From assembly GCA_947566705.1 (NCBI GenBank), contig CANOLA010000012.1, positions 1-49,398 on the forward strand: 49,398 nucleotides of DNA, in the 5' to 3' direction. The position numbers and the translations under genes are program-made. Shown here one piece after another: positions 11,675-49,398 of this stretch. Below the pieces are notes generated by a model. It saw only the letters and a program-made list of their open reading frames with translations. It ran no database searches and was not told where the DNA came from. Every line of letters starts with the position of its first letter. The stretch's first letter is position 1. The DNA is from an uncultured Lachnospiraceae bacterium (lineage in GTDB: Bacteria; Bacillota; Clostridia; Lachnospirales; Lachnospiraceae).

Positions 11675-11743
11675 ACTGTTCCTCCCTTTTTGAACTCTGG
11701 TACCGCCCCTTCGCTTCGCTCAGCGGCATGTCGTCGGCTCTTC

Positions 11744-12883
11744 TTACAACCCGAATATTTCTTCCAGTTCGTGTTCATGAATCTCTGTTCCGATTACAAC
11801 GATACGTCCGGTATATTCCGGCTCACCCTCACGGATTTCGTATTCACCCGGAACCATGTCAAAATAAATCCATCCGCCTTCTGTGTTTTCAACCATTCCC
11901 TTGGCACGGAGGATATTGTCAGACTCCGCAAACTTCTTTAAGATCTCCTCAAGCTTTTCCTTTTCAAACTTGTGCGGCGTCTCCCTGCCCCAGCTGGTAA
12001 ACACGTCATCTGCATGGTGGTGACCGCCATGATGATGTTCGTGATCATGGTCATGTTCACAGCAGTGTCCATTGTGTTCATGCGCATGTTCGTCATCATG
12101 ATGGTGGGCATGTTCGTCATGGGCATGTTCGTCATGGTCATGTCCGTGCTCTTCATGGTCGTGACAGTGCTCTTCATGGTCGTGGTCTTCATCATGATGA
12201 TGCCCATGTTCTCCATGATGGTGGTGGCTGTGCTCCTCCTCATCCTTTGCATGGCGGGCTTCTGCCAGTACCTTCATTTCAAGGTTGTCCTGCCCCTCCA
12301 TCGCTTTTAAAATCTGCTCCCCTTTGATTTCATCCCATGCAGTGGTAATTACGGCAGCCTTTGAATTCAGCTTCTGAATCTGTTTTACACACTGCTCAAG
12401 CTGCTCCGGTGTAGCACTCTGACTGCGGCTTAAAATCACAGTTGTCGCATACTCAATCTGATTATTGAAAAACTCCCCGAACGCTTTCATCTGTTTGTTC
12501 GCTTTTAATGCATTCACAACGGTAACCAGTGCGTTTAATTTTACGTCCTGCTCTTTCTCAATGTCAATTACTGACTTCATGACATCAGAAAGTTTGCCAA
12601 CACCGGACGGCTCAATCAGAATCCGGTCCGGATGGTATTTGGTAATCACTTCGTTTAAGTTTTTACCAAAGTCACCTACCAGCGAGCAGCAGATGCAGCC
12701 GCTGTTCATCTCGGTAATCTCGATTCCGGCATCCTTTAAAAACCCGCCGTCAATGCCGACTTCACCGAACTCATTTTCAATCAGCACAATCTGCTCGCCC
12801 TGAAAAGCTTCATCAATCATCTTTTTAATAAAAGTTGTCTTACCGGCTCCTAAAAAACCGGAAATAATATCAATCTTTGTCAT
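11744..12883 (-). CDS. CobW/COG0523-family GTPase with histidine-rich metal-binding loop
   Basis: A 379-residue putative metallochaperone GTPase. It has Walker A GFLGAGKTT (9-17), the family metal motif GCICC (about 62-66), and a Glu-rich switch (IENEFGEVGIDG). The usual NKxD is replaced by LSRSQ. Between the GTPase core and the C-terminal CobW_C domain lies a roughly 75-residue stretch (about 216-290) made almost wholly of His, Asp, Glu, Gly and Cys, typical of zinc or nickel storage loops. I choose ATG 12883 because AGGAG is 8 bases upstream; the ATG at 12889 is too close. It leads a two-gene set with the second CobW protein. The metal is not determinable from sequence, zinc being most usual. 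Confidence 0.85.
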   Translation of the reverse strand: MTKIDIISGFLGAGKTTFIKKMIDEAFQGEQIVLIENEFGEVGIDGGFLKDAGIEITEMNSGCICCSLVGDFGKNLNEVITKYHPDRILIEPSGVGKLSDVMKSVIDIEKEQDVKLNALVTVVNALKANKQMKAFGEFFNNQIEYATTVILSRSQSATPEQLEQCVKQIQKLNSKAAVITTAWDEIKGEQILKAMEGQDNLEMKVLAEARHAKDEEEHSHHHHGEHGHHHDEDHDHEEHCHDHEEHGHDHDEHAHDEHAHHHDDEHAHEHNGHCCEHDHDHEHHHGGHHHADDVFTSWGRETPHKFEKEKLEEILKKFAESDNILRAKGMVENTEGGWIYFDMVPGEYEIREGEPEYTGRIVVIGTEIHEHELEEIFGL

Positions 12884-41088: not shown

Positions 41089-41172
41089 CTTTCTGACATT
41101 TTCTTTCGACAACCACCAGTCATCTAGCCAGATTGTGGTAAATGCCAAACCCTTATAAAGCTCGCAAGACAC
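41062..41172 (-). CDS. possible 36-residue peptide with Trp-rich core
   Basis: GTG start at 41170-41172 with GAGGG a few bases upstream; the frame gives MSCELYKGLAFTTI, then WLDDWWLSKENV and RKALLRQSFS. Its last codons form the UUCG terminator hairpin and its stop lies in the T-run, so translation would compete with termination. No signal or membrane helix. Coding status is uncertain; it may instead be part of a non-coding RNA. Confidence 0.35.
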   Translation of the reverse strand: MSCELYKGLAFTTIWLDDWWLSKENVRKALLRQSFS

Positions 41173-41215
41173 TGCCCTCTGGCACAACATCCTGTATCAA
41201 CGCTTTGACAGACAC
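41153..41215 (-). CDS. possible 20-residue leader peptide
   Basis: A GTG-started frame (MSVKALIQDVVPEGSVLRAL, stop at 41153) near the predicted start of the short transcript, overlapping the 36-residue frame. There is no strong ribosome site. Offered as a candidate only. Confidence 0.3.
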   Translation of the reverse strand: MSVKALIQDVVPEGSVLRAL

Positions 41216-46277: not shown

Positions 46278-47027
46278 TTATATATCTGATCTCTTTTTGC
46301 TGTGTGCCGTTATAATAGTATAACTGTGTGCATTTACCGTGATAACAAAATTATCTGCATTTACATACCAGTTTTTTCCTCTTCTTTCAATAATGGCATG
46401 AGCCGAACTGATTTTATCTTTGCACCATGCAACAACATCATCTGTATCCAAAGACAGATTCTTTTTTATGCGTGCAATCCCCAGCTCCGTAGAGTGCAGT
46501 TTATCTAAATGATTCAGCAGTTCCAAGCCTGAATCTGTCTCTTTTTCCTGCTTAACAGAACTGGGAATTTCATCATTAGAATTGCAAAGTATATGCAGCC
46601 GTCCGTTAGAATCCACTATCCTCATGTTCCTCACAGTGCTCTCACCAGCCGGAATCGTCACATTCAGCCTGTGATTGTAGTCATCAATCTCATAAATAAG
46701 ACCGCTGAACATTGTTGCCGGAAGAATCATATGACAAGTCATTTCAGGCATAGGACAAACAGCTATTGGAATCGAAGAATATGTTATTTTTCCAATGCGC
46801 AATCCTTTCAGTTTGTAAGATGGACATTCTGTCCTTCCACCAAATCCGGTAATTGGAACTGTTTTATTCATAGGTATTCCACCAAGTTTTTTGAGCAGCC
46901 TCTCTTCATCTGTCCATACCGGGAAAAGAGCCCCGGTATCAAGCAATGCCAACACATTATTCCATGTTCTTAAAAAGATAAAGGGTCTTTGCTGGTTTCC
47001 ATTTAACTCTAAGGAAAATTGAATCAT
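46278..47027 (-). CDS. retropepsin-like aspartic protease fused to a DUF3781-like domain
   Basis: A 249-residue cytosolic protein. Residues about 1-135 look like a retropepsin-fold domain: LALLDTGALFPVW has the catalytic Asp30-Thr31-Gly32, followed by a flap-like segment (PITGFGGRTECPSYKLKGLR) and a hydrophobic strand MILPATMFSG. Such domains act as dimers. After a polar linker (about 145-165) the rest (HLDKLHSTELGIARIKKNLS, VVAWCKDKI, NWYVNADNFVITVNAHSYTI) matches the small DUF3781 family, usually a stand-alone protein of 70-90 residues. Upstream and 9 bases away is an 77-residue partner gene. Function unknown; possibly a processing or defence system. Confidence 0.72.
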   Translation of the reverse strand: MIQFSLELNGNQQRPFIFLRTWNNVLALLDTGALFPVWTDEERLLKKLGGIPMNKTVPITGFGGRTECPSYKLKGLRIGKITYSSIPIAVCPMPEMTCHMILPATMFSGLIYEIDDYNHRLNVTIPAGESTVRNMRIVDSNGRLHILCNSNDEIPSSVKQEKETDSGLELLNHLDKLHSTELGIARIKKNLSLDTDDVVAWCKDKISSAHAIIERRGKNWYVNADNFVITVNAHSYTIITAHSKKRSDI

Positions 47028-47341: not shown

Positions 47342-48448
47342 TTACCCCGCCTCTGTTCCCATCAGTCTTCCAAGCTGCTCCACAATTCCCGCATTTCCAT
47401 TCACAGAAATCTCACCGACCTTTTCGCAGATTCTTTCCAGATATTCCAGCTCCTTTAATTTATAGAGCGTGGTATTTTCCTCCATCAGCTTTGCCGTATT
47501 TAAAAGTGACCTGGTGGAAGCCACCTCCTCCCTTCTGGAAATTACGTTCGCCTGTGCAGTTTTTTCTGCTACAAGCACAGAATTCATAATTTCCTTTATT
47601 TCTCCCGGTAAAATAATATCCTTAATTCCTGCAGTTAAAAAATCTATGCAGAACATGGTTTCTTTTTCCTTAAGCGCCGCAAAGATTTCACCGGAAATTT
47701 TTTCCTTTATTTCAAGGATTTCATCCAGCCTGTAATTTCCCACAGTTTCACGGATCACAAGCTGGACTGCAGAATAAAGCTGCCCTTTTAAGTCCAGAAT
47801 TTTTTCCGAAAATTCTACTGCGTCCCTTATTTTAAACATGCAGGCAACATTCATCCGGATTCCGATTTTATCCCTGGTTAAAATCTCCTGTCCCACAATG
47901 TCCAGCTCTCGCTGTTTCATGTCAAAAACACGGAATGATATATCGTGCTCATAATTCCAGAAACGGTAGACTCCCCTGGTACACTGCTTTTTTAACACAT
48001 TATCGTAATAAACCAGTCCGGTTTCTCCTTCCCCCACCTTCATTTCCGTGTAATATTTCTGCGGAAGCATGGAAAGCATCTGCTTCGTTACTTCGTTTCC
48101 CATCACGGTTTCCTCCATGGAAACGACTTTGATTTCATATGTATCAAATACATTCCAGAAGGTATATTCTTTTCTGTTCGCAAACGTCGTCAGTTTCCCG
48201 TTCAGATAAATAAACCCCACAGAGCCGTCCGGTATTTCCATATGTACAGTGGCATTTAAAAATGTCTTATCCCTGGAAAGTACCTGGTAAGGAACGTCCA
48301 TGTAATCCAGCTCACCCGTCATTTCCTCTATCTCCACCTCATAACCGAATGCTCTGGAAAAATGATAGGTTCCGGCCGTGAGCATTTTCTGAAACATCCC
48401 GTCCTTTAATACAAATCCCGCCTGATTATCCTTAATAATATATTTCAT
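47342..48448 (-). CDS. slipin-family SPFH/band-7 protein
   Basis: About 368 residues with no membrane helix or signal, unlike classical slipins. The SPFH/band-7 domain covers about 150-300 (RVFDMKQRELDIVGQEILTR, FKIRDAVEFSEKILDLKGQL, QLVIRETVGNYRLDEIL), followed by a coiled-coil region. An N-terminal domain starting MKYIIKDNQAGFVLKDGMFQ repeats the NQxGF pattern. I prefer ATG 48448; a GTG at 48457 is possible. It lies downstream of RtcB on the same strand, separated by the structured RNA region. Slipins beside RtcB and Ro60 genes are known in bacterial RNA-repair clusters, where they may anchor or scaffold the complex (established association; role inferred). Confidence 0.85.
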   Translation of the reverse strand: MKYIIKDNQAGFVLKDGMFQKMLTAGTYHFSRAFGYEVEIEEMTGELDYMDVPYQVLSRDKTFLNATVHMEIPDGSVGFIYLNGKLTTFANRKEYTFWNVFDTYEIKVVSMEETVMGNEVTKQMLSMLPQKYYTEMKVGEGETGLVYYDNVLKKQCTRGVYRFWNYEHDISFRVFDMKQRELDIVGQEILTRDKIGIRMNVACMFKIRDAVEFSEKILDLKGQLYSAVQLVIRETVGNYRLDEILEIKEKISGEIFAALKEKETMFCIDFLTAGIKDIILPGEIKEIMNSVLVAEKTAQANVISRREEVASTRSLLNTAKLMEENTTLYKLKELEYLERICEKVGEISVNGNAGIVEQLGRLMGTEAG

Positions 48449-48481: not shown

Positions 48482-48743
48482 GATACTTTTATCCTTCTTT
48501 CATCCGCCGGATGCGGAATCCCGGTTGAGCAGACGGTTGGAAGAAAGGACATTCTGCAGCTAAATTTCCTCTTTGTTCCCCTGGAAACAAAAAACAAAAA
48601 TCCGTTTTGCAGACTGCTGTTTCCCCTTCCCGGATGCGGTATCCCCAAAATTTCAGGCAGCCGGCCGATTTACATGCTCCGCCTCTGGCATATCCAAAAA
48701 TGGATATACCAGAAACGGTGTGTGAAATCCGGATAAAAGTATC
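48482..48743. repeat. small element with 13-bp terminal inverted repeats
   Basis: GATACTTTTATCC (48482-48494) and GGATAAAAGTATC (48731-48743) are perfect inverted repeats bounding 262 bp in the slipin leader. Inside are two copies of CCGCATCCGG, a T-rich run, and a strong hairpin. No transposase is encoded and no clear target duplication is seen. It may be a MITE-like insertion or part of the RNA leader. Confidence 0.5.
48685..48712 (-). other. 12-bp hairpin in the slipin leader
   Basis: CTGGTATATCCA-TTTT-TGGATATGCCAG on the minus strand, fully paired with one G-U. No T-run follows, so it is not a terminator; it could be a structural part of a leader RNA. Confidence 0.6.
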
Positions 48744-48754
48744 TTTCATTTAGC

Positions 48755-48872
48755 GCGGGTTTAAACCGCAAGACTTGACAGGTCTTTTTCATTGTGTGCT
48801 TTACCACTTAGCTACCGTTTACACGGGAGGGATTCGAACCCCCGAAACACAAATTCTTTTTCTTAACCCCAC
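48755..48872 (-). ncRNA. circularly permuted tRNA-like RNA (Y RNA/YrlA-like) between RtcB and slipin
   Basis: Read 5' to 3' on the minus strand: basal stem GTGGGGTTAAG (48872-48862); 5' strand TTGTGT (48852-48847) of an anticodon-stem equivalent; TTC as variable region; a T-arm with GGGGG, TTCGAAT, CCCTC (48843-48827); a short acceptor stem CCGT/ACGG closed by GTAA (48826-48815); TA; a D-arm GCT/AGC with loop AAGTGGTAA that keeps GG (48812-48798); ACACAA (48797-48792) pairing with TTGTGT; a hairpin AAGAC-CTGTCAA-GTCTT (48786-48770) like an anticodon arm; and TTTAAACCCGC (48765-48755) pairing with the basal strand at 10 of 11 positions. All tRNA core elements are present, but T-arm precedes D-arm, so it is not a normal tRNA. 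This is the layout of tRNA-mimic modules in bacterial Y RNAs. Confidence 0.75.
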
Positions 48873-48980
48873 GTTAAGATGGTGAAATATTTATGGTATA
48901 CCTGACAGCACGCTGCAGGCACCGCCGGGCAGGAAGCAGCTTCCAATACCCTGGCATAAATAAATTATTTCCGTTATTTA
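48873..48980 (-). other. structured spacer between RtcB stop and the tRNA-like RNA
   Basis: No ORF. On the minus strand it holds hairpins GGAAG-CTG-CTTCC and CCTG...CAGG, and ATG(CCAGG)GTAT can pair with ATACCAT to close the GC-rich middle. It could be a second small structured RNA or a processing region; no terminator is evident between RtcB and the tRNA-like RNA, so co-transcription is possible. Confidence 0.35.
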
Positions 48981-49398
48981 CTATCCCTTCACTACGCCTG
49001 CTGTTTTTAATTTTCTTACCGGCGTAACCAGGTCTGACTGCTGTGCCATCACCTCGTCGATATCCTTGTAGGCAAACCGGCATTCTTCAGGCACATCATT
49101 TTTCTTTCGTTTTCCAAGGATTACTCCCTGTTCCTTCAAATCCACCATAACCTTTTCCACAGTAAATGCCTGCATTGCCCCGGTTCTGGAATAGTTTCTG
49201 CCTGCACCGTGGGAGGAAGTACAGAAAGATTCCCTGTTTCCTTTTCCCCTTACCACATAGCTGTATGAACCCATTGCCCCTGGAATCACAGCCATCTCTC
49301 CTTCCCGCACCCTTGTGGCTCCCTTACGGTGCACCCAGACATTCGCGTCATAATGATTTTCCAGTGATGCATAGTTATGGTGGCAGTTAATCTCTTCT
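48981..49398 (-). CDS. rtcB: RNA 3'-phosphate ligase RtcB, C-terminal part (cut by window edge)
   Basis: The last 138 codons of RtcB are visible; the start is beyond the right edge. Signatures: WVHRKGATRVREGE, with the HRKGATR motif, GAMGSYSYVV with the GSMGxxSYVV motif, SSHGAGR with the GMP-linked His of the SxHGAGR motif, and the C-terminal AYKDIDEVMAQQSDLVTPV, ending GVVKG. RtcB joins 3'-phosphate or 2',3'-cyclic phosphate ends to 5'-OH ends, using GTP and Mn2+, in RNA repair or tRNA splicing. All catalytic residues in view are intact. It lies upstream of the tRNA-like RNA and slipin on the same strand. Confidence 0.93.
   Translation of the reverse strand, partial: EEINCHHNYASLENHYDANVWVHRKGATRVREGEMAVIPGAMGSYSYVVRGKGNRESFCTSSHGAGRNYSRTGAMQAFTVEKVMVDLKEQGVILGKRKKNDVPEECRFAYKDIDEVMAQQSDLVTPVRKLKTAGVVKG

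What the first reader, a model, noticed from the sequence alone, without database searches (positions are those of the whole stretch)
48755..48872. A circularly permuted tRNA-like RNA sits between rtcB and a slipin gene
The spacer folds into T-arm, capped 4-bp acceptor stem, D-arm, closing stem, with the conserved D-loop GG and T-loop TTCGAAT, and an outer stem pairing at 10 of 11 positions. The order T-arm before D-arm excludes an ordinary tRNA. Salmonella Y RNAs (YrlA) are tRNA mimics encoded beside Ro60 and RtcB; here the partners in view are RtcB and a slipin. It suggests an RNA-repair or RNA-quality-control ribonucleoprotein in a gut-type Clostridium. The additional anticodon-like hairpin (loop CTGTCAA, GUC) within the 3' strand is not something I know from YrlA.
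Basis: partly seen in the sequence, partly recalled or inferred. Interest (0 to 1): 0.88.

Follow-up and report, generated by a model that had tools for sequence, protein, structure and literature searches.

The report
Permuted tRNA mimic beside RNA-repair genes
Between an RNA-repair ligase gene and a ring-forming-type protein gene, gut bacteria carry a long structured RNA whose middle copies the parts of a tRNA in scrambled order, including a look-alike of the anticodon loop, which suggests bait or a docking handle for repairing damaged tRNAs.

Summary
T-arm, capped 4-bp acceptor, D-arm and closing stem are real and conserved: in 22 sequences 14 of 33 pairs have double changes (shuffled mean 4.8). 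T-arm plus capped acceptor occurs upstream of slipin in 70 of 78 loci, against 6 of 1,422 control windows. The object is larger: a structured RNA of about 490 nt (48482-48972) fills the rtcB-slipin spacer, with covarying 5' and 3' domains. A further hairpin mimics an anticodon arm; 11 of 17 triplets are GUC, GUA or GUU, the class cut by colicin E5. Ro60 was not found in 25 of 26 genomes. The slipin lacks a membrane segment and has three tandem repeats (seven or nine in two orthologues). Best reading: a Ro60-independent tRNA-mimic RNA that baits or docks anticodon damage for a slipin-RtcB repair particle; mechanism untested. I recall a 2016 paper naming an SPFH/Band-7-RtcB system with "a novel tRNA-like molecule" (not readable here), so: new variant of a known kind.

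The parts
48981..49397 (-). 3' end of rtcB (contig ends inside the gene)
   Evidence: Pfam PF01139, 165.5 bits, profile positions 275-426
48482..48972 (-). whole structured RNA, about 490 nt, filling the rtcB-slipin spacer; starts 8 nt after the rtcB stop and ends 33 nt before the slipin ATG (true transcript ends unknown)
   Evidence: covariation in 5', middle and 3' parts
48882..48972 (-). 5' domain: two hairpins (GGGTATTGGA..TTCCTGCCC; GGTGCCTGCAGC..GCTGTCAGGTATACC), possible outer helix GGAAAT..ATTTC
   Evidence: 21-sequence alignment A4; 23 pairs, 8 with double changes; model R2, which includes this sequence, 108.3 bits
48862..48878 (-). hairpin CTTAAC-GTGGG-GTTAAG, kept as a hairpin with other letters in some relatives
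   Evidence: helix 1 (86.5% paired; 2 pairs with double changes)
48792..48852 (-). permuted tRNA-like core closed by TTGTGT/ACACAA
48827..48843 (-). first T-arm (loop TTCGAAT)
   Evidence: helix 3: 100% paired, 3 of 5 pairs with double changes
48815..48826 (-). capped 4-bp acceptor stem (loop GTAA)
   Evidence: helix 4: 100% paired, 1 of 4 pairs with double changes; for the wider family
48798..48812 (-). D-arm with GG in the loop
   Evidence: helix 5: 96.6% paired
48770..48786 (-). anticodon-arm mimic AAGAC-CUGUCAA-GUCUU
   Evidence: helix 6: 96.6% paired, 2 of 4 pairs with double changes; loop statistics
48755..48769 (-). second T-arm; loop TTTAAAC here, TTCRANN in the other 21 aligned sequences
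   Evidence: helix 7: 100% paired (alignment)
48731..48743 (-). P0 5' strand GATACTTTTATCC
48482..48494 (-). P0 3' strand GGATAAAAGTATC, exact complement of 48731-48743
   Evidence: 268 paired positions summed over 22 loci, shuffled mean 215.5, max 228
48645..48653 (-). 3'-domain helix, 5' strand AAATTTTGG (partner 48516-48524)
   Evidence: unguided pair scan, 30 double-change cells, top of the list
48516..48524 (-). 3'-domain helix, 3' strand CCGGGATTC
47342..48448 (-). slipin-type SPFH protein, 368 aa, no membrane segment predicted by hydropathy, three N-terminal tandem repeats
   Evidence: Pfam Band_7 75.7 bits; stomatin match starts at residue 137; repeats; hydropathy

Best explanation
SHOWN: a large structured RNA lies directly 5' of a slipin-type SPFH gene, often next to rtcB, and has at its centre a circularly permuted tRNA mimic (T-arm, capped acceptor, D-arm) and, in the window's clade, a separate anticodon-arm mimic and a second T-arm. 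INFERRED: the RNA is the RNA subunit of a slipin-RtcB repair particle. The capped acceptor prevents charging and use in translation. The elbow and the anticodon-like loop (G34-U35 in 11 and U33-G34-U35 in 9 of 17 seven-base loops, as in tRNA-Asp/Asn/Tyr/His) present a tRNA surface that anticodon nucleases of the colicin E5 kind, or tRNA-handling enzymes, recognise. Cut RNAs of that sort end in 2',3'-cyclic phosphate and 5'-OH, the ends RtcB joins. The RNA would either bait the nuclease and be re-sealed by RtcB, or hold broken tRNAs and RtcB together on the slipin ring. In relatives a pair of WYL-type proteins next to the operon is a likely regulator.
For: Covariation of the core, 5' domain, 3' domain. 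T-arm plus capped acceptor in 70 of 78 slipin-upstream windows against 6 of 1,422 controls. Slipin and the RNA's 5' domain occur in the same 2 of 62 genus genomes. Hairpins with loop YUGUNAR in 22 of 78 upstream windows against 29 of 1,682 controls; 17 of 22 close relatives have a 7-nt loop, A37 in 17 of 17, U33 in 13, triplets GUC 6, GUA 3, GUU 2. Colicin E5 cuts tRNA-Tyr/His/Asn/Asp between G34 and U35 leaving cyclic phosphate, and E. coli RtcB joins such ends (PMC6277466, passages). For YrlA, the Salmonella authors already suggest that the tRNA-like domain may act as a competitive inhibitor of an anticodon nuclease (PMC7790460, passages). rtcB in 53 of 80 loci. Slipin and rtcB genes are co-repressed by TrcR, relieved by translation-blocking antibiotics, in Anabaena (PMC10272220, passages); an SPFH gene lies in the P. 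aeruginosa rtc locus (PMC13086221, passage).
Against: No transcript, binding or repair data. The RNA could be a leader of the slipin mRNA: no terminator-like site between them. 6 of 17 loop triplets are not GUN, 8 of 17 loops lack UGU at 33-35, and 5 of 22 close relatives lack a 7-nt loop. The patterns were written after seeing the close clade, related loci are counted apart, and the 22 hairpins were not all checked to be the same hairpin (L024's is not the one beside the second T-arm). rtcB was not clustered in 27 of 80 loci (some contigs are short). In a tested case an RtcB module (RtcB2-PrfH) did not protect E. coli from colicins E5 or D (PMC9223846, passages); cut YrlA fragments were not seen in Salmonella, so YrlA is not a substrate there (PMC7790460, passages). 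Of the ten more distant slipin loci of the order search, five have weak R1 matches (17.0-26.1 bits), two about 12 bits and three none.
Confidence: 0.45

Rival explanations
1. A cis-acting leader: the structured spacer is the 5' UTR of slipin and the tRNA-like part senses tRNA state or recruits RtcB or an RNase to control slipin expression.
For: RNA lies directly upstream of slipin wherever it was found; no terminator-like site between RNA and slipin; P0 ends 33 nt before the start codon.
Against: About 490 nt with three domains and a tRNA elbow is elaborate for a leader; the mimic keeps its parts while their order changes between clades; YrlA, the closest architecture, acts in trans with a protein.
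Confidence: 0.25
2. A bacterial Y RNA (YrlA): its outer part binds Ro60 and the tRNA-like part is the effector module.
For: Same order of arms and closing stem; YrlA is the best Rfam family at the site (30.2 bits) and matches 5 of 6 relatives scanned (31.6-38.4 bits).
Confidence: 0.07
3. A remnant of ordinary tRNA genes rearranged by chance.
For: The parts are clearly tRNA-like; R1 cross-matches at 30-48 bits in many genomes are probably tandem tRNA genes.
Against: Compensatory changes, conserved order and position in dozens of loci.
Confidence: 0.02
4. A circularly permuted gene for a working tRNA that is cut open at the acceptor cap and joined by RtcB into a chargeable tRNA.
For: Order T-acceptor-D-anticodon arm at the end of some relatives (L063, L075; by eye); RtcB beside it; permuted tRNA genes are known (PMC3978253, listing and start of abstract only).
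Against: In the window the acceptor is only 4 bp and the anticodon arm lies outside the closing stem, next to a second T-arm.
Confidence: 0.06

Closest known systems
SPFH/Band-7-associated 'novel tRNA-like molecule' of RtcB repair systems (Burroughs and Aravind 2016, Nucleic Acids Res.; recalled abstract only, paper not held)
   Same: Band-7 protein, RtcB and a tRNA-like RNA in one locus; in E. coli, Photobacterium and Burkholderia records a tRNA-like stretch also lies upstream of the slipin homologue, followed in the two E. coli records opened by a nucleotidyltransferase gene (RlaP by Pfam in the one tested)
   Different: Here circularly permuted with capped acceptor, anticodon-arm mimic and second T-arm set apart, inside a ~490-nt RNA; WYL-type pair nearby in relatives. 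Whether that paper describes permutation I could not check.
YrlA bacterial Y RNA (RF02553)
   Same: T-arm, capped acceptor, D-arm closed by a stem; beside rtcB in some bacteria (PMC7790460 and PMC8394870, passages)
   Different: no Ro60 found; extra anticodon-arm mimic and T-arm; large 5' and 3' domains; 30.2 bits against a 69-bit cut-off
Major vault protein and vault particle (recalled)
   Same: tandem N-terminal repeats followed by an SPFH-like domain and a helical tail; RNA partner
   Different: no vault model among Pfam matches at E up to 10 and no vault chain among solved-structure matches; resemblance is of layout only
Circularly permuted tRNA genes
   Same: T-arm before D-arm with joined acceptor strands
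   Different: not a complete tRNA; closing stem replaces the anticodon stem

Membership tests
YrlA / bacterial Y RNA | Rfam model at or above gathering score | tested here: not met
   30.2 of 69 bits
YrlA / bacterial Y RNA | permuted tRNA-like module (T, capped acceptor, D, closing stem) | tested here: met
YrlA / bacterial Y RNA | Ro60 (TROVE) partner in the genome | tested here: not met
   0 of 1 (genome 84% complete); 1 of 26
YrlA / bacterial Y RNA | binding to Ro60 and effector such as PNPase | not testable with these tools
   biochemistry
SPFH/Band-7-RtcB tRNA-like RNA | Band-7 protein encoded directly beside the RNA | tested here: met
SPFH/Band-7-RtcB tRNA-like RNA | RtcB-type ligase in the locus | tested here: met
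   window; 53 of 80 loci
SPFH/Band-7-RtcB tRNA-like RNA | same RNA as in the 2016 description | not testable with these tools
   paper not held
tRNA | recognised cloverleaf | tested here: not met
   ARAGORN none; Rfam tRNA 17.7 of 29 bits
Stomatin/slipin (SPFH) | SPFH core | tested here: met
   Band_7 75.7 bits; stomatin E 2.3e-25 with the family profile, from residue 137
Stomatin/slipin (SPFH) | N-terminal membrane hairpin | tested here: not met
   highest 19-residue hydropathy 1.53 in the 39 aligned proteins, 1.19 in the window protein
Vault (MVP) | sequence match to vault domains | tested here: not met
Vault (MVP) | tandem N-terminal repeats then SPFH-like domain | tested here: met
   3 repeats in the window protein, 7 in L126, 9 in L124; the MVP layout itself is recalled
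Vault (MVP) | closed cage holding RNA | not testable with these tools
   structure prediction never ran (29 busy replies)

The most novel reading that the evidence does not exclude
The slipin forms a soluble, vault-like ring or cage from tandem repeats plus an SPFH shoulder, and the ~490-nt RNA is its guide or cargo: a permuted tRNA elbow with a G34-U35 anticodon bait that attracts GUN-specific anticodon nucleases or their broken tRNA products into the particle, where RtcB re-seals them. This would be a bacterial counterpart, by descent or by convergence, of the vault (repeat-plus-SPFH shell, small RNA, Ro-type protein) in which the tRNA mimic replaces the Ro60-Y RNA pair.
Probability: 0.2. 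Interest if true: 0.93.

Novelty: new variant of a known kind. Interest (0 to 1): 0.74.

Why it matters
What RtcB repairs in bacteria, and what the RNAs and scaffold proteins beside it do, is open. This locus gives a defined RNA with covariation-supported structure, a bait-like anticodon loop largely of one recognisable tRNA class and a protein partner that travels with it, so the question becomes testable in cultured gut species and in E. coli strains that carry a related slipin with its upstream tRNA-like stretch (1,621 of 5,426 genomes cover at least 80% of that query). The repeat-plus-SPFH layout of the protein also raises a possible bacterial parallel to eukaryotic vault particles.

Tried and rejected
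Single-sequence folding was uninformative (for the Photobacterium tRNA-like stretch). DNA search in 60 relatives (2 matched, one being the own genome) found otherwise only a 24-base match in G035 that looks by eye like an ordinary tRNA gene. Model R1 in whole genomes is not specific below about 50 bits (49 of 62 genus genomes and 270 of 392 order genomes match at E 0.001); I take those as tandem tRNA genes, checked only for L022 6236-6355, which lies on two ARAGORN tRNAs, so I used R2 and the slipin instead. R2 does not reach distant loci (9 matches in 72 sources), so the 5' domain is shown only for the close clade; short motifs suggest more (5' element in 32 of 78, GGGATACCG in 23 of 78 loci). 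The pair scan had no shuffled control; L008 and L012 lacked the anchor and were dropped (20 of 22 used). A2 left out L014, L017, L025 and L026 (inserts or extra modules). In one search the first hairpins reported for L059, L062, L068, L080 and L081 do not look like acceptors. L116 carries the same RNA as L015 and is not independent. No match of the slipin in phages. No NCBIfam cut-off is met by the slipin and PADLOC has no match for it. Literature: searches naming slipin, SPFH or Band-7 with RtcB, Y RNA, RNA repair or tRNA-like showed no paper that describes this RNA; of their hits I read passages of five and of one also found, the rest only as listings; the library lacks most subscription papers.

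Full report
What is there. The window is a whole contig (G000:C12) that ends inside rtcB. Reading the minus strand: rtcB 3' end, a 532-nt spacer, then a slipin-type SPFH gene. T-arm, capped 4-bp acceptor, D-arm and the closing stem TTGTGT/ACACAA are as described; ARAGORN finds no tRNA and the Rfam tRNA model reaches only 17.7 of 29 bits.

Is it more than chance? Folding one sequence says no (z -0.69). Comparison says yes. A scan with the slipin protein gave 80 loci. Twenty-one of these plus the window form alignment A2; over seven helices 93.6% of cells pair, 14 of 33 pairs show changes on both sides (shuffled mean 4.8) and every slid control falls to 27-48% paired. One pair, the sixth of the closing stem, forms in only 5 of 22. 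RNAalifold, given no structure, returns six of the seven helices. Model R1 built from A2 matches upstream of slipin at 30 bits or more in 55 of the 80 loci (my count from the table; 21 of the 55 were in the model), with no match of 30 bits or more elsewhere in those loci. A simpler test, T-arm directly followed by a capped hairpin, is met in 70 of 78 slipin-upstream windows (2 of 80 loci had under 400 nt upstream) against 6 of 1,422 control windows. This pattern was written after seeing the close clade, related loci count apart, and in about five of the 70 the hairpin shown is not a convincing acceptor. The carriers include Lachnospiraceae, Oscillospiraceae, one of two Paenibacillus, Shimazuella and a Lentisphaerae MAG (titles). 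Some loci have two or three such modules in a row (L025, L049, L074, L063, L075; seen by eye).

Corrections to the observation. The proposed outer stem is not supported: 62.6% paired against 62.0% in shuffles. In relatives its 5' strand is part of a hairpin (CTTAAC/GTTAAG) and its 3' strand is a second T-arm (mostly GCGGTTCGAATCCGC), whose loop has drifted in the window. The RNA is also much larger. The 91 nt that begin 8 nt after the rtcB stop form a 5' domain (A4, 21 sequences, 23 predicted pairs, 8 with double changes). After the second T-arm, GATACTTTTATCC pairs with GGATAAAAGTATC just before the slipin start; summed best pairing over 22 loci is 268 against a shuffled mean of 215.5 and maximum of 228. 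An all-against-all pair scan of three anchored blocks, with no structure given, put AAATTTTGG/CCGGGATTC (30 double-change cells), TCGGCCG/GGCGGAT (26) and GGGGAAA/TTTCTTC (11) on top (20 of 22 loci had the anchors; no shuffles were run, the control is the rest of the list). So the spacer encodes one RNA of about 490 nt; its true ends are unknown. Rfam reports no gathering-level family there.

The anticodon-like hairpin. In 17 of 22 close relatives a 4-bp stem with a 7-nt loop abuts the second T-arm; the loop has a pyrimidine at 32 in 17, U33 in 13, A37 in 17, A or G at 38 in 17; triplets GUC 6, GUA 3, GUU 2, GAA 2 and four singles; U33-G34-U35 together in 9 (five relatives without a 7-nt loop were left out of these counts). 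Stems in other clades are unrelated in sequence (tttgcaa, tgcac, tcagc and others) yet carry CUGUCAA, CUGUAAA or CUGUUAA. Hairpins with loop YUGUNAR occur in 22 of 78 upstream windows against 29 of 1,682 control windows; not every one was checked to be the same hairpin, and the pattern was chosen. GUC, GUA and GUU belong to tRNA-Asp, -Tyr and -Asn, which with tRNA-His are the targets of colicin E5, cut between G34 and U35 with a cyclic-phosphate end; E. coli RtcB joins such ends (PMC6277466, passages). That the same U33-G34-U35 is the site of queuosine insertion is recalled.

Partners. Wherever the RNA was found it lies 5' of the slipin, but the loci were found with the slipin, so this is partly by construction; the independent check is that the 5' domain (R2) and the slipin occur in the same 2 of 62 genomes of the genus, which also hold the only R1 matches above 100 bits. 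rtcB lies upstream in Lachnospiraceae and, as a more distant relative (about 28-34% identity), downstream of slipin in several Oscillospiraceae and Clostridia MAGs. Slipin is accessory: 11 of 392 genomes of the order. One gene cluster, usually as a pair, is divergent from or upstream of the operon in 54 of 80 loci; of six members tested from three loci four pass a Pfam WYL or WCX cut-off, and PADLOC WYL profiles match both members of L012. TROVE/Ro60: 0 of 1, 1 of 26. In E. coli the slipin homologue is followed by an RlaP 'RNA repair' nucleotidyltransferase (PF10127, 323 bits) and preceded by a T-arm with a capped 7-bp hairpin (read by eye); in Photobacterium two stretches that pass the Rfam tRNA cut-off precede it (54.1 and 46.4 bits), and in Burkholderia a normal-order tRNA-like stretch (by eye). 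So the tRNA likeness is constant in the records seen and the order of arms is not. In E. coli 1,624 of 5,426 genomes match the slipin-plus-upstream query, 1,621 over at least 80%.

The protein. The SPFH core matches stomatin from residue 137 on (E 2.3e-25). The first 136 residues replace the membrane anchor: no 19-residue stretch above hydropathy 1.53 in the 39 aligned proteins. They hold two copies of a module whose third copy begins the SPFH match (hhalign 97-98% probability between the copies). Orthologues with seven (L126) and nine (L124) copies exist. Nine repeats, an SPFH-like shoulder and a helical tail is, as recalled, the layout of the major vault protein; no vault model or structure matches by sequence, and structure prediction could not be run.

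How it probably works, and how sure. Shown: a conserved structured element with a permuted tRNA mimic and an anticodon-arm mimic, tied to the slipin. Inferred: it is the RNA part of a slipin-RtcB repair particle, acting as bait or handle for anticodon-loop damage. [quoted passage not shown] Independent hints: TrcR co-represses rtcB, a slipin gene and a tRNA operon in Anabaena (PMC10272220, passages); an SPFH gene sits in the rtc locus of P. aeruginosa (PMC13086221, passage). Against: no transcript data, a leader role is possible (no terminator-like site), YrlA itself was not cut in Salmonella, and an RtcB2-PrfH module did not protect from colicins E5 and D (PMC9223846, passages).

Novelty. I recall that Burroughs and Aravind (2016) named SPFH/Band-7 modules with 'a novel tRNA-like molecule' in RtcB systems; the paper is not held. 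I therefore call this a new variant of a known kind. What I found no trace of in the searches listed under Tried and rejected is the circular permutation with covariation beside a slipin, the 490-nt frame, the GUN anticodon bait, and the repeat expansion of the slipin.

Noticed in passing
L124 (867-aa frame) and L126 (653-aa frame): Slipin orthologues with nine and seven tandem N-terminal repeats, a vault-like layout.
   Followed up: partly
L012:631-3041(-), L060:2365-4516(+), same cluster in 54 of 80 loci: WYL/WCX-type proteins, usually a pair, beside the operon; probable regulators.
   Followed up: partly
L127:4190-6416, L131: E. coli slipin with an upstream tRNA-like stretch and a nucleotidyltransferase gene after it; slipin query matches in 1,624 of 5,426 genomes; one record (H19) keeps only a 209-nt upstream part.
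   Followed up: partly
L130:4162-4299: Two stretches upstream of a Photobacterium slipin homologue pass the Rfam tRNA cut-off and may be annotated as tRNA genes elsewhere.
   Followed up: no
L063, L075 (upstream of slipin): Terminal module reads T-arm, capped acceptor, D-arm, anticodon arm (loop CTTTTAA in L075): a nearly complete permuted tRNA (by eye).
   Followed up: no
window 41091-41205 (-): drum RNA (RF02958, 82.9 bits).
   Followed up: no
window 11695-11745 (-): GA-cis RNA (RF02987, 44.2 bits).
   Followed up: no
window 46278-47027 (-): Protein joining an aspartyl-protease-like domain (Asp_protease_2) and DUF3781.
   Followed up: no
L009 and L010, 3' part of the RNA: Short tandem repeats (GCGGCATACTTTGCAGC-like) expand the 3' domain (seen by eye).
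   Followed up: no
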